Source: Chloroflexota bacterium | GTDB taxonomy: Bacteria; Chloroflexota; Anaerolineae; Anaerolineales; Villigracilaceae | Direction: 5' to 3' | Assembly: GCA_019873735.1 (NCBI GenBank) | Contig: JAIOAQ010000001.1 | Location: forward strand, 124,001 to 188,000 | DNA: 64,000 nt | Shown: positions 8,113-14,487 of the stretch, one piece after another | How the letters are laid out: every line of letters starts with the position of its first letter | Numbering within the stretch: the first letter of the stretch is position 1 | Position numbers and translations under genes: made by a program | The notes under the pieces: model-generated | The model's input: the letters and a program-made list of their open reading frames with translations, nothing else | Databases searched by the model: none | What the model was told of the DNA's origin: nothing

Positions 8113-8255
8113 GACACAAATTTCCTTTCTGCTTTTGAGGCTCTCTGTCTGTGGGCTGTGACTTTGCCGAACCAAAAGCCTTGAACAAGGTGTTGCCTTC
8201 CAGCCATATCCTGACTGATGCCGGTGCCTGTCCTATGGCCACCGGCAAGCAACCC

Positions 8256-8286
8256 TGTAGGACAACTGCTTTGCAGTTGTCCTACA
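8256..8286. repeat. perfect hairpin, copy 1 of a dispersed element; contains the stop codon of the GH2 gene
   Basis: TGTAGGACAACTGC-TTT-GCAGTTGTCCTACA, 14-bp arms; near-identical copy at 25995-26025. Confidence 0.85.
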
Positions 8287-10087
8287 CGTTTTGCTTCGCA
8301 AAACTGCCGCCGTATTCGATCAGGACGGTGTGCAGGCGGCGCAGGGTCTCGGCGTCCATCTTCTCCACCTGGCGGTCGTAGGTCAGGTAGCCGTTGATTT
8401 CGATTTCCACGTCGGTCGTCTGGGTGTAGACCACGGCCGTCAGGCCGCGCCCAATGAGCGGACGGATTTCGTTCTCCAGCAGGTCGCGGTAGGCTGCCGT
8501 CAGGGAGGCGGAGTCGGGGTAGAAGCGGTAGCCGAATTTGCGTTCTTCATCCCAGACATGGCCGGGGATTTTCAGGCTGTAGCCGCCGGTCTCCGAGATG
8601 ACGAAGGCGCGCCGGTCGGGTTTGGGCGCTTTGAGACGGGTGAAGTAGATGTGGCGGCTGAGGAAGTCGCCGCCGCCCTGGTCGAACCAGCCGGAGGCGT
8701 GATCCACCAGGCGGGTGGGGTCGCAGGCTTTGACCCACCCGGCGATTTCCCTGGCGTGGAATTGCCCCCAGGATTCGTTGAACGGCACCCAGGCGGCGAT
8801 GCAGGGGGCGTTGTAGAGATGGTCAATCATCTCTTTCAGTTCGGCCCGGTACCGGTCGCGGTTTTCCTGCTCGGCCCGCCCAAAGCGCTTGAGATGGCGG
8901 GTGTCGTCGCGCCGGAGGCCGAACGTCAGGGCGAGGAAGGCGGTCACGTCGCCGTCTATCCGCCCGCCGTTGGGCATATCCTGCCAGACGATCAGGCCGA
9001 GGCGGTCGCAGTGATAGTACCAGCGCAGCGGCTCGACCTTGACGTGCTTGCGGATGAAGTTACAGCCGATGCGGCGGGTGTACTCGATGTCGAAGAGCAT
9101 GGCTTCTTCGCCGGGCGGCGTGTAGAGGCCGTCGGGGAAGTAGCCCTGGTCGAGCGGGCCGTAGAGGAAGAGCGGCTCGTTGTTCAGGGCGAAGCGCAGG
9201 TGACCGTCCCGGTCGGGCAGCAGGCTGAACTTGCGCAGGGCGAAGTAGGAGGTCACCTCGTCGAGCAGGGTGTGGCCCTGCAGGAGGCGCAGGCGCAGGT
9301 CGTAGAGATGCGGATCGGCGGGGCTCCAGGGACGGGGGGCGGGAATCTCCAGTTGCAGGCGGCCGGCCGTGGGTCCGCTGGCCGAGGCGACCGGCTGGCC
9401 GCCGCTGGAGGCCTCTGCCCAAAGTTGGAGGGATTCTGCCGAAGCGGCGCCGCGCAGTTCCACTTCCACGGTCAGCGAGGCCTCGTCCAGGTTGGGGGTC
9501 AGTTTGAGCCGCTCGATGCTGATCTGCGGCACAACCTCCAGCCAGACGGTTTGCCAGATGCCGGAAACGGCCGTGTACCAGATGCTGCGCGGGCGCAACA
9601 CCTGTTTGCCGCGCTGCTGCAGGCCGGCGTCGGTCGGGTCGAGGACGGCAACCACCAGTTCGTTTTCGCCCGGCCGCAGGGCGGGGGTCAGGTCGAAGGT
9701 GAAGGGCAGGTAGCCGCCGACGTGTCCGCCGAGCGAAATGCCGTTGAGCCAGACTTCGCAGGCGTAATCCACCGCGCCGAAATGGAGCAGCAGGCGGGAG
9801 GGTTCGCCGCCGGCGAGGGGGTTCTCGAAGAAGCGGCGGTACCACAGGCGCTGATCGGGCCGCAGGGCGGTTTGAACGCCCGAAAGGAGCGATTCGAGCG
9901 GGAAGGGCACCAGGATTTTGCCGGCGTAGGCCTGCGGGGCGGGGGACTCGGCGGGCAGGAGGGCGTAGTCCCACAGGCCGTTCAGGTTCAGCCAGCGGCC
10001 ATCGGGGCGCACCATCTGCGGGCGGGGATGCTCCGGCAGCGGGCAGGGCAGGGAGGGGGTCCAGGGCGTGCGCAGGGGGGCGGTCAT
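8282..10087 (-). CDS. glycoside hydrolase family 2 protein (beta-galactosidase/glucuronidase-like)
   Basis: Start set at MTAPLRTPWTPSLP (10087). RPDGRWLNLNGLWDYAL, YRRFFENP, LLHFGAVDYACEVWLNGISLGGHVGGYLPF, CNFIRKHVKVEPLRWYYHCDRLGLIVWQDMPNG. Confidence 0.92.
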   Translation of the reverse strand: MTAPLRTPWTPSLPCPLPEHPRPQMVRPDGRWLNLNGLWDYALLPAESPAPQAYAGKILVPFPLESLLSGVQTALRPDQRLWYRRFFENPLAGGEPSRLLLHFGAVDYACEVWLNGISLGGHVGGYLPFTFDLTPALRPGENELVVAVLDPTDAGLQQRGKQVLRPRSIWYTAVSGIWQTVWLEVVPQISIERLKLTPNLDEASLTVEVELRGAASAESLQLWAEASSGGQPVASASGPTAGRLQLEIPAPRPWSPADPHLYDLRLRLLQGHTLLDEVTSYFALRKFSLLPDRDGHLRFALNNEPLFLYGPLDQGYFPDGLYTPPGEEAMLFDIEYTRRIGCNFIRKHVKVEPLRWYYHCDRLGLIVWQDMPNGGRIDGDVTAFLALTFGLRRDDTRHLKRFGRAEQENRDRYRAELKEMIDHLYNAPCIAAWVPFNESWGQFHAREIAGWVKACDPTRLVDHASGWFDQGGGDFLSRHIYFTRLKAPKPDRRAFVISETGGYSLKIPGHVWDEERKFGYRFYPDSASLTAAYRDLLENEIRPLIGRGLTAVVYTQTTDVEIEINGYLTYDRQVEKMDAETLRRLHTVLIEYGGSFAKQNV

Positions 10088-11091
10088 CGGGCGGCCTCCG
10101 GGGCAGAGGGGCGCTCCGGCAGGCGCACCCAGACGGTCATCCCGGAGGCGCCGCGGTTGCCCCACAGGAAGTAGGGGATGAATTTCAGCGGGCGGCCTTC
10201 GACGGTGCGGGCATGAATGGCGGTGAGGCCGCCCAGCAGGTCGGGTTCGTGGCGCTCGGTCAGCGAGGCCGGGTCGAGGCGCAGGGAGAAGAGGTCGAGG
10301 CCGGGGTTGTCGAGGCTTTCGAGACAATAGACCAGCAGCCCGGCAAAGACGACCGAGGACTTGCCCGCCCCCGAAGCGCCCACCACCGCCGTCAGGGGGC
10401 GGCCGGTCACTGCCTGCAGCAGGCGCTCGCTGAAGGCTTCGCGCCCGAAAAACAGGGCGGCATCCTGCTCGCGGAAGTAGTGCAGCCCGCGGTAGGGGTT
10501 GGGCGGCATGGCGCGCTCGGCCAGCATGGGCAGGGTTTGCAAAAGCGCGCTCACCGGGACGCAAAAGGCGGCTTTGACCTGCGGCGAACGCTCTGCCGCC
10601 ACGACCATGCCCACCACGCCTTCCAAGCGTTCGTCCCACACGGGCCCGCCGCTGAAGCCGGGCTGGACGGCGAAGCCGGTCTCTTTGGTGTCCTCGATGT
10701 GCAGCCAGCCTTCGGCGGTACGGTCACGCAGCACACCGCTCGCCCACACCCCGCCATCGTATCCCGCCGGGCAGCCAAAGGCGCGGAAGGGGTGCCCCCA
10801 CAGGTCGGCGCTCTGCACCAGGCGGACGGGAGCCACACCGCGCGGCAGCGAACGCGGCTCGATAGCAGCGATGTCTGCCGCATCTTCCCGGATCAAAACG
10901 CGCCCGGAGCAGTGCTCGGCGGGCGCGAGGAGGGGGAAGTCGAAGGTCACTTCGGTGGAGTCTCCCACGGCTTGTTCGATCACATGCGCGCAGGTGACGA
11001 TAACCTGCGGGGCGGCCAGGAAGCCGACGCCGACGGGTTTGCCGGCGCCGTTCAGAATGCGCACCAAACTGTTGTGCAGGGCGTGGGTCAT
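10084..11091 (-). CDS. chimeric ORF: trypsin-like serine protease + start of an nSTAND NTPase (ends just after Walker A), fused in frame to the C-terminal tail of a GH127 (DUF1680) glycosidase
   Basis: Trypsin-like H/D/S motifs (VTCAHV, DIAAIE, PGFSGGPVWD); NPYRGLHYFREQDAALFFGRE...LTAVVGASGAGKSSVVFAG; then LVYCLESLDNPGLDLFSLRLDP...LKFIPYFLWGNRGASGMTVWVRLP, a GH127-like ending. Confidence 0.75.
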   Translation of the reverse strand: MTHALHNSLVRILNGAGKPVGVGFLAAPQVIVTCAHVIEQAVGDSTEVTFDFPLLAPAEHCSGRVLIREDAADIAAIEPRSLPRGVAPVRLVQSADLWGHPFRAFGCPAGYDGGVWASGVLRDRTAEGWLHIEDTKETGFAVQPGFSGGPVWDERLEGVVGMVVAAERSPQVKAAFCVPVSALLQTLPMLAERAMPPNPYRGLHYFREQDAALFFGREAFSERLLQAVTGRPLTAVVGASGAGKSSVVFAGLLVYCLESLDNPGLDLFSLRLDPASLTERHEPDLLGGLTAIHARTVEGRPLKFIPYFLWGNRGASGMTVWVRLPERPSAPEAAR

Positions 11092-11120
11092 GCAGCCCCT
11101 CTGTAAATGAAGTCTGGTTT

Positions 11121-11150
11121 ATTTTACGCCATTCTTTCTTGCTCTGTAAA
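11121..11150 (-). promoter_or_regulatory. sigma70-like promoter upstream of the trypsin-nSTAND chimera
   Basis: Minus strand TTTACA-N18-TAAAAT, 30-59 bp upstream of ATG 11091. Confidence 0.5.
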
Positions 11151-11152
11151 GT

Positions 11153-11186
11153 TAAAAAACGCCCTGAAGGTTTGTGAACCTTCGGG
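11153..11186 (-). terminator. rho-independent terminator after the gatZ-like gene
   Basis: Minus-strand hairpin CCCGAAGGTT-CACA-AACCTTCAGG followed by GCGTTTTTT. Confidence 0.75.
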
Positions 11187-11231
11187 ACGGTTGTGGGACA
11201 GATCTTTGACCTGTCCGTTGCAGGACAAGTC

Positions 11232-12488
11232 CTACTGCACTGCCACCAAATACCCTTCCAGGCACGCTGTGACGTGCGCCATGATCAGGGCGCACGGCTG
11301 AGCGGATAATCGGCCGGCCCGCACCTGTTCATATTCCTGCGGCAGGTACTGGCTGAGCAGGGAGAGCGGCGGCGGGGTCTGCTCTAGGTTGCGCAGCAGG
11401 CGCTCAAAGGCTGCCTGCACCGCCGGAACGTTCCAGTAATAGCGGATGCGGTCGCTGAAACTGTAGGCGCGGGCAAATTTCTGGTGCTCTGGGCTGCCGC
11501 CGTAGTGCTTTTGCCAGTGTACCGGGTTGGCGAGCATGGCTTCTTCCAGGGTCTCGCGCATGCGAGAGGCGGGCGAGATTTTGAGGGCTTCCTCTATCTC
11601 TGCCAGGGCAAAGACGGCCTCGCGCAGGGCAAAGGTGAGCGCCGGGCCGACTTTGAGGATGGCGAAATGGTCCTGCACCAGGGCGCGCAGGGCGGCGGGG
11701 GTTTGATAATCGGTAGAGTGGGCTTCATAAACGATTCCCGGCACGGTTTCGATGAAGCGGGAGAGGGGCGCGGCGGCAGCGCGGTCGTAGTCGTGGATGG
11801 CCGCATCGCCAAATTCGACGCCGGGCTGCACCACCAGGGCGCGCACCCGCTCCCAAGCGGTGTGCAGACCGCGCGCCTGAAAGGCCTGGCGCGCCGCTTC
11901 CAGCGTTTGGGCGGCGGATTCGGGCGTGGTGACGGCGGGATGGGCCTCTCCAGCCCTGGCTCCGCCCGCCGCCGGCACCTCCGAGCCGATGACGTAGCGC
12001 AGGCTGCCGTTTGAGGCTTCTTGCTCGGCCGCTTCGGCCAGTTCTGCCGTGCGCCGGGCGATTTTCTCCAGGCTCAAATGCTCTTCCCCGCCGAGCGGCA
12101 TGGAACAATCCAGATGAATTTTTGTGTAACCTGCTTGAACGAAAGCGCGCACCAGGCCGGCGGCTTTGTGCATGGCGCTTTCGGCGGGTTCGTTTGCCCA
12201 GGGCAGCGGGCCGAGATGATCGCCGCCCAGCAGGAGCCGCTCAGGGGGTAAGCCCACCCGCCCGGCGGCCTCCCGCACAAAGCGGGCGAAATCGGCGGGG
12301 GTCTGGCCGGTGTAGCCGCCGAACTGATTGACCTGGTTGCAGGTGGCTTCGATGAGGACGGGGCGGTTGTGCGTCAATCCGTGACGCAAGGCGGCCTCGA
12401 TGACCAGCGGATGGGCCGAGCAGACCGAGGTCAGGCCAAGGGGCAGGCCGTAGTGATGGGAGGCAGCGAGGAAGTCTAGAAAGTTCAT
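11232..12488 (-). CDS. GatZ/KbaZ-like protein (D-tagatose-bisphosphate aldolase non-catalytic-subunit family)
   Basis: GLPLGLTSVCSAHPLVIEAALRHGLTHNRPVLIEATCNQVNQFGGYTGQTPADF ... LLGGDHLGPLPW ... KIHLDCSM; no GatY-type class II aldolase found nearby. Confidence 0.85.
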   Translation of the reverse strand: MNFLDFLAASHHYGLPLGLTSVCSAHPLVIEAALRHGLTHNRPVLIEATCNQVNQFGGYTGQTPADFARFVREAAGRVGLPPERLLLGGDHLGPLPWANEPAESAMHKAAGLVRAFVQAGYTKIHLDCSMPLGGEEHLSLEKIARRTAELAEAAEQEASNGSLRYVIGSEVPAAGGARAGEAHPAVTTPESAAQTLEAARQAFQARGLHTAWERVRALVVQPGVEFGDAAIHDYDRAAAAPLSRFIETVPGIVYEAHSTDYQTPAALRALVQDHFAILKVGPALTFALREAVFALAEIEEALKISPASRMRETLEEAMLANPVHWQKHYGGSPEHQKFARAYSFSDRIRYYWNVPAVQAAFERLLRNLEQTPPPLSLLSQYLPQEYEQVRAGRLSAQPCALIMAHVTACLEGYLVAVQ

Positions 12489-12539
12489 GGGAGAGAGGGA
12501 AGAGGAAAGAGAAGAGAGGAGAGAGGAGAGAGAAACGTA

Positions 12540-13454
12540 TTAGAGGTAGGCGAGGGCTTGAGCGAGGGCGGGCTGCGCGGCTGTGCCGCCCGGGGCTTGC
12601 GTGGAGAGCGCCCCGCACACGCACGCCAGCCGCAGGGATTTCTCCAGCGTCCACCCGTTGAGGTAGCCGTAGATGAAACCGGCGTCGAAACTATCGCCCG
12701 CGCCGACCGTATCCACGACTTGTACAGGAATACTTTGCACGCGGACTTTGCGCCCTTTGGAGACTCCCAACGCCCCCTCCTTTCCCAGTTTAATCGCTGC
12801 CGTTTCCACCCTGACCCCGAGCCTGTTGGCTGCTTCTTCGACAGTTTCCGCCGCTGTGAGCGACCTGGCTTCCACTTCGTTGGGGAGGAAAACGTTTGTA
12901 AGAGGAAGCAGGTCAAAGACCCCGCTCCAGGTTTCGGACGGGTCGTAGTTGGTGTCGAGGGAGGTGGTGAGGCCGAGGGAACGGGCGCGCTCGAAGAGGC
13001 GGGGCAGGCCGGGGCGCAGAGCATCTTGCAAAAAGTATGAGGCGACGTGCAGGTGGCGCGCCTGGCGGAGCAAAGCATCGGGGATGTCTTCGGCGGATAG
13101 CGCGGAAATCAGGCCCGGGTGAGTCAGAATCGCCCGGTCAACGCCGCGGTTGAGAATCACGCTCAGGCCGGTCACCCCGTCCGGGACCTGAATCACGTTT
13201 TCCACATTCACGCCGCGCTTTTGCATCTCTTCGAGCATAAAGCGGCCAAACACGTCAGCGCCGCACTTGCCGATGAAGGCCGCCTTCAGGCCCAGCCGCG
13301 CCGCGCCGCAGGCAAAGATGACCGAGGATGAGCCGATGGTGAGAACGGCTGAGTCAACCAGTTTTTCAACCTGGCCGAAGGCAGGTTCGACATCGCCGGA
13401 GAGAATCAGGTCGGGGTTGATTTCGCCGGCAACGAGGAGATCGTAGGGTTTCAT
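12540..13454 (-). CDS. PfkB-family carbohydrate kinase
   Basis: [59 protein letters not shown] (PfkB DTxGAGD). Start [15 protein letters not shown] at 13463 is an alternative. Confidence 0.9.
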
Positions 13455-13479
13455 ACGCAACATAAGGGATAGGCGGGGG

Positions 13480-13521
13480 AGTAAACAGGTAGGCAAGTAA
13501 ACAGGTAGATGAAGTACCTGT
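13480..13521. promoter_or_regulatory. direct repeat plus inverted repeat in the lacD-pfkB intergenic region
   Basis: AGTAAACAGGTAG at 13480-13492 and 13496-13508 (16-bp period), then ACAGGTA-N7-TACCTGT at 13501-13521. Confidence 0.35.
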
Positions 13522-13542
13522 GTACGTGTTTCCCTCTCTACA

Positions 13543-14487
13543 CTAATACGTCCTGTACCAGTCGAAGGGGGCTTCGGCGGTGTAGAAATCGGTGAAGGGC
13601 CTGGCGAGAGCGGCGCAGAGGGCATTCAGGCGGGTAAGCCGCTCGCGGGCAACCGTGCGCAGGAAATCGAGCCGGGCCTGCCCTTCGAGGTGGACGGCCT
13701 CCTGCCAGACGGCGCGGCCAACCGCAATCCCGCTCGCCCCGGCCTGGCAGGCGGCGATGACCTGTTTCAGGTACAGGTCAAAGGAGACGGCGGCGGAGAG
13801 GACAATCCAGGGGACGCGGCTGGCGGCGTTCAGTTCGGCGCAGGCGGCGGGCCAGTCAGTCTCCGGGCCCTCGCCGGAGAGGGGGAATTCGGCTTTGAGC
13901 AGGTCCACGCCGGGGATGGCGGTGAGACGGCGGGCGGTTTCGACCACCACGCGGCGTTTTTCTTCGCCGGAAAGTTTGGCCTCGGTGAGCGAGTAGGAGA
14001 GTGGTTCGAGCATCAGGCCGAGGTCGTATCGGACGCATTCGGCGGCGATTTGGGCGGTGAAGGCTTCGGCTTCGGCGGCGGCGGGCGAATCGGGGTGGTA
14101 GTAGACGAGCAGTTTCACCATGCTCGCGCCCATCCGTTTGGCTTTTTCCACGCTCCAGCCGGGGATGACCTGTCCCTTGCGGGCGGTGGCTTCGCCGGTG
14201 TAGCCGGTGGATTCAACCGCCACGACAAAACCCTTATCGCCGGGAAGTTTTCCGGCGGCGATGGCCTGGGCGGCGGAGACTTCCGGGTCGAGCAGGACGG
14301 AGGTGGCATAGGCGGCCAGTTCGGCGGTCACCTCCAGTTTGAAGCGGCTGAGTTCGGCATCGTCCTGAAAGCGCGGGTTGGCTTTGCGCAAGTTCTGGCG
14401 ATGGTCGAGGGCCAGGCAGGTGAAGGTGCCGCGCGGCGAGGCGCAGGTTTGCAGTCCGCGCAGTTTGCCGATGGTGAGAGGGTTCAT
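13543..14487 (-). CDS. tagatose-1,6-bisphosphate aldolase, LacD-like
   Basis: MNPLTIGKLRGLQTCASPRGTFTCLALDHRQNLRKA...VVAVESTGYTG...MGASMVKLLVYYHPDS...LMLEPLSYSL...VDLLKAEFPLSG...SGIAVGRAVWQEAV. Confidence 0.85.
   Translation of the reverse strand: MNPLTIGKLRGLQTCASPRGTFTCLALDHRQNLRKANPRFQDDAELSRFKLEVTAELAAYATSVLLDPEVSAAQAIAAGKLPGDKGFVVAVESTGYTGEATARKGQVIPGWSVEKAKRMGASMVKLLVYYHPDSPAAAEAEAFTAQIAAECVRYDLGLMLEPLSYSLTEAKLSGEEKRRVVVETARRLTAIPGVDLLKAEFPLSGEGPETDWPAACAELNAASRVPWIVLSAAVSFDLYLKQVIAACQAGASGIAVGRAVWQEAVHLEGQARLDFLRTVARERLTRLNALCAALARPFTDFYTAEAPFDWYRTY

What the first reader, a model, noticed from the sequence alone, without database searches (positions are those of the whole stretch)
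10084..11091. Chimeric ORF: trypsin-nSTAND sensor cut after its P-loop and fused to a GH127 tail
The protein begins as a trypsin-like protease with H, D and S motifs present, continues as an nSTAND NTPase (NPYRGLHYFREQDAALFFGRE...GASGAGKSSVVFAG) and then switches at about 10325-10345 to LVYCLESLDNPGLDLFSL...FIPYFLWGNRGASGMTVWVR, which reads as the C-terminus of a GH127 beta-L-arabinofuranosidase. The rest of the NTPase, any sensor repeats and most of the GH127 are missing. The chimera's stop overlaps the GH2 start (ATGA), as expected if GH127-GH2 was once an operon. Most likely a deletion joined a defence-type gene to the sugar operon; a misassembly is the alternative.
Basis: partly seen in the sequence, partly recalled or inferred. 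Interest (0 to 1): 0.72.

Follow-up and report, generated by a model that had tools for sequence, protein, structure and literature searches.

The report
Two genes fused by a deletion
In this bacterial genome assembly the front of a protease/ATPase gene of a defence-associated type is joined in frame to the tail end of a sugar-cutting enzyme gene, most likely because a stretch of DNA between the two was recently lost; it looks like a one-off accident (or an assembly error), not a new kind of protein.

Summary
The 335-aa ORF at 10084-11091(-) is a Trypsin_2 domain, the first 56 of 379 positions of nSTAND1 (up to the P-loop) and positions 20-71 of 71 of the GH127 C-terminal domain. The join can be placed within four bases, GCTG, at 10333-10336. 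Both parents exist intact in relatives: trypsin-nSTAND1 genes that run on into WD40 repeats or GAF/kinase modules, and GH127 enzymes of about 650-700 aa. The predicted GH127-GH2 pair with the ATGA stop/start overlap is present in two relatives. No genome in the family, order or class samples has a match spanning the join. The home genome holds no GH127 catalytic domain and no close remainder of the nSTAND gene, and no repeat at the join could explain an ordinary assembler error. Neither half has decayed, so the event is recent, or it is an artefact. Best explanation: a deletion of at least about 5 kb by illegitimate recombination left a protease with a dead NTPase stub and a non-catalytic GH127 tail, and put GH2 behind the protease gene's promoter. 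Reads are needed to exclude a chimeric join. Interest is low to moderate.

The parts
10084..11091 (-). Chimeric ORF, 335 aa (trypsin-like protease + nSTAND1 stub + GH127 C-terminal tail)
10606..11031 (-). Trypsin_2 domain (residues 21-162), His/Asp/Ser motifs kept
   Evidence: E 1.5e-14; aligned with intact relatives; AlphaFold block pLDDT mostly 82-96 up to residue 120
10333..10497 (-). nSTAND1 stub (residues 199-253) ending just after the P-loop GASGAGKSS; Walker B and the rest of the NTPase missing
   Evidence: profile 1-56/379
10333..10336 (-). Junction: the 4 bases GCTG that fit both parents; upstream follows nSTAND1, downstream follows GH127
10123..10332 (-). GH127 C-terminal tail (residues 254-323, VYCLES...MTVWVR)
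   Evidence: Glyco_hydro127C, E 1.1e-12; best matches 57-64% identical to intact GH127
8282..10087 (-). GH2 glycoside hydrolase, 601 aa; its ATG overlaps the chimera's TGA (ATGA at 10084-10087)
   Evidence: orthologues up to 70% identical in relatives
11121..11150 (-). Sigma-70-like promoter (TTTACA-18-TAAAAT, 10/12) ahead of the chimera
   Evidence: 1 found, 0.1 expected
11154..11189 (-). Terminator-like hairpin followed by T6 after the upstream gatZ-like gene, so the chimera probably starts a separate transcription unit
   Evidence: -16.6 kcal/mol, z -4.25

Best explanation
An ancestor carried, in the same orientation, a trypsin-nSTAND1 gene of the defence-associated type (about 1,240-1,670 aa in relatives, with C-terminal WD40 repeats or GAF/kinase modules) followed by a GH127-GH2 pair. 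One recent deletion, with 4 bases (GCTG) shared at its ends, removed everything from just after the P-loop of the first gene to just before the last ~80 codons of the GH127. Retained: the protease promoter and protease domain, a non-functional NTPase stub, a non-catalytic GH127 tail, and the intact GH2 with its ATGA overlap. Consequence (inferred): loss of the NTPase-regulated protease and of the GH127 activity; the protease domain can probably still fold; GH2 is now transcribed from the protease promoter, and because the join is in frame, ribosomes reach the ATGA and GH2 keeps its translational coupling. Shown: domain make-up, junction, parents, uniqueness, lack of decay. Inferred: deletion as the mechanism, expression, protein fate.
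For: Domain split. Junction within 4 nt. Closest intact parent L078: 68% identical over residues 1-253, then continuing with nSTAND1 and, in another frame, WD-type repeats. GH127-GH2 with ATGA overlap in G126 and G138. No GH127 catalytic domain and no close nSTAND1 remainder elsewhere in the home genome. Junction DNA has no second copy. No match spanning the join in 151 other family genomes, 399 order genomes or 395 class genomes (the samples overlap in part). The tail breaks 0 of 22 conserved GH127C columns and the stub none of its conserved columns except the one lost beyond the join. GC and third-position GC are similar on both sides.
Against: No reads, so a chimeric join in the assembly is not excluded. 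No relative has the two parent genes side by side, so the ancestral order is assumed and the deletion size is a minimum. Lack of decay is expected from an artefact too.
Confidence: 0.7

Rival explanations
1. Assembly artefact: the two gene pieces come from separate places (same or another organism of the sample) and were joined by a chimeric read, gap filling or scaffolding.
For: The genome is a fragmented assembly of 71 contigs, 94.75% complete; single occurrence; no decay of either half; no relative with the two genes adjacent.
Against: Ordinary k-mer misjoins need a shared repeat of tens of bases, and here at most about 4-5 bases are shared with no other copy of the junction in the genome. 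The complementary pieces are absent from the whole assembly. The join is in frame and lies 134 kb into a 220 kb contig. Composition matches on both sides.
Confidence: 0.25
2. A selected fusion: the chimera is kept because a truncated, unregulated protease, or the GH127 beta-domain tail as a binding or folding element, has a new function.
For: Open in-frame ORF with intact catalytic motifs and undecayed halves; the protease part models with high confidence.
Against: Not found in any other genome searched. The nSTAND stub models poorly (block pLDDT 39-64) and the tail lacks the start of its domain and models patchily (blocks 40-86). A recent deletion explains the lack of decay without selection.
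Confidence: 0.05

Closest known systems
Trypsin-nSTAND1 proteins of putative bacterial conflict systems (nSTAND1 named in PMC8195603; peptidase effectors and STAND sensors discussed in PMC10907252)
   Same: Protease at the N terminus followed by the nSTAND1 start; 68% identical over 253 residues to the copy in L078
   Different: NTPase cut after the P-loop; no Walker B, no sensor repeats; cannot work as a switch
GH127 beta-L-arabinofuranosidase (3wkw; 4qjy)
   Same: Residues 254-323 are a clear GH127 C-terminal domain
   Different: Catalytic and middle domains absent; non-enzymatic
GH127-GH2 gene pairs in related genomes (G126, G138, G053)
   Same: GH2 orthologue starts at the GH127 stop by ATGA (or TTGA) overlap
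   Different: Here the GH127 body is replaced by the protease-nSTAND stub

Membership tests
Trypsin-nSTAND1 conflict protein | Trypsin-like domain with His/Asp/Ser motifs | tested here: met
Trypsin-nSTAND1 conflict protein | Complete STAND NTPase (Walker A and B, C-terminal helical part) | tested here: not met
   profile positions 1-56 of 379 only
Trypsin-nSTAND1 conflict protein | C-terminal sensor or repeat region | tested here: not met
   absent in the chimera; WD40 or GAF/kinase modules in intact relatives
Trypsin-nSTAND1 conflict protein | Role in anti-phage defence | not testable with these tools
   PADLOC gives only partial, weak matches (RT-Protease_XI, Avs1b) over the protease part
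GH127 beta-L-arabinofuranosidase | GH127 catalytic domain (PF07944) | tested here: not met
   absent from the ORF and from the whole genome
GH127 beta-L-arabinofuranosidase | GH127 C-terminal domain (PF20737) | tested here: met
   positions 20-71 of 71, E 1.1e-12

The most novel reading that the evidence does not exclude
The truncated protease is expressed, stable and active without NTPase control and drives the GH2 gene in a new regulatory setting: a sugar operon rewired by capture of a defence-type gene's promoter and reading frame.
Probability: 0.05. Interest if true: 0.45.

Novelty: new member of a known kind. Interest (0 to 1): 0.22.

Why it matters
It is a clean example of how a single deletion can remove a defence-type gene and an enzyme gene at once while keeping the downstream gene readable. 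For annotators it is a warning that this ORF should be called neither an nSTAND NTPase nor a GH127. It does not point to a new system.

Tried and rejected
Fusion as an established gene family: no spanning match in the family, order and class samples, among genome contigs or viral contigs. Missing pieces lying elsewhere in the genome: none found. Repeat-driven misjoin: no repeat. Old pseudogene: no excess of changes at conserved columns. A known defence-system assignment: only weak partial PADLOC matches. Shared gene order with relatives on the gatZ side, to show the ancestral order: none found in the loci held.

Full report
Observation. The ORF at 10084-11091 on the minus strand is open for 335 codons. 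Pfam finds, in order, a complete Trypsin_2 domain (residues 21-162), the first 56 of 379 positions of nSTAND1 (199-254) and positions 20-71 of the 71-position GH127 C-terminal domain (249-323), all above the curated cut-offs. PDB sequence matches agree: Deg/HhoA-type proteases for the front, GH127 enzymes 4qjy and 3wkw for the back.

The join. Intact nSTAND1 relatives mostly read SSVVxAGL(L/F/I)PxLR and intact GH127 relatives mostly read RGPLVYCLES; the chimera reads SSVVFAGLLVYCLES. At the DNA level the chimera is GCCGGGCTGCTG|GTCTATTGTCTCGAA. The codon before the GH127 leucine has C or A at its second base in every relative inspected, never T as here, and most nSTAND1 relatives go on with CC after the leucine-position codon. 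The two parents can therefore share only GCTG, 10333-10336, perhaps one base more.

Parents. The nearest intact front part is L078 (another family of the same order), 68% identical over residues 1-253 and 74% identical in DNA over about 600 bases. It continues with nSTAND1 to profile position 258 and, after one frame change, into WD-type repeat sequence (the WD reading of that last part is by eye). Full-length relatives of 1,238-1,668 aa carry WD40 repeats, or GAF and histidine-kinase-type ATPase domains. The back part is 57-64% identical to the ends of the closest GH127 enzymes, mostly about 650-700 aa long. In G126 and G138 the GH127 stop overlaps the start of the GH2 orthologue as ATGA, and in G053 as TTGA; other relatives have the two genes near each other with a gap.

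Uniqueness. Searches of 152 family genomes, 400 order genomes and 396 class genomes (home genome included, samples partly overlapping) give matches to the nSTAND/protease side or to the GH127 side, never across the join. Searches of genome contigs and viral contigs give none either. No other genome of the genus is held.

Deletion or artefact. The home genome contains no GH127 catalytic domain and no close nSTAND1 remainder (the other ten matches there are weak). The junction sequence has no second copy. A de Bruijn-type misjoin needs a shared word much longer than 4-5 bases (general knowledge of assemblers), so the artefact route would have to be a chimeric read or gap filling. GC (69 and 70%) and third-position GC (0.84 and 0.88) match on the two sides. 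These points favour a real deletion, but without reads they do not prove it. If the parents were adjacent, the loss is at least about 1,000 codons of the first gene plus about 575 codons of the GH127, roughly 5 kb (estimate from relatives' lengths).

Age. Neither half shows decay. The tail keeps all 22 columns conserved in 26 GH127 tails, and its mean identity to the panel (57.5%) lies inside the panel's own range. The stub keeps every conserved column up to the join. The deletion is therefore recent, or the join is artificial.

Likely consequences. A terminator-like hairpin (-16.6 kcal/mol, z -4.25) closes the upstream gatZ-like gene and a promoter-like site lies at 11121-11150, so the chimera probably starts its own unit. 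In the AlphaFold model the protease is mostly confident (ten-residue block means 82-96 up to residue 120), while the nSTAND stub (39-64 in residues 191-260) and much of the tail are not. The protein is expected to be at best a free protease domain with a floppy tail. Because the join is in frame, translation runs to the ATGA and GH2 stays coupled; this is inference from anatomy.

Verdict. The finding is a single, probably recent deletion fusion of two known gene kinds, with about one chance in four of being an assembly artefact.

Noticed in passing
L005:4859-5056, L011:6001-6161, L040:1501-1731: 5' stubs of the same protease family, ending at different points (about residues 52-77) and followed by unrelated sequence; the stubs are 78-83% identical to each other in DNA including bases upstream of the start. 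The 3' part of this gene family seems to be lost repeatedly.
   Followed up: partly
window 8250-14250: GC is mostly 60-72% here against 58.6% for the window; the stretch holds GH2, the chimera and tagatose-pathway-like genes (gatZ/kbaZ-like, PfkB kinase, LacD-like aldolase), possibly an acquired sugar cluster.
   Followed up: no
L078:5281-7711: The closest intact relative of the front half changes frame late in the nSTAND1 region, so it may itself be a pseudogene or carry a sequencing error.
   Followed up: no
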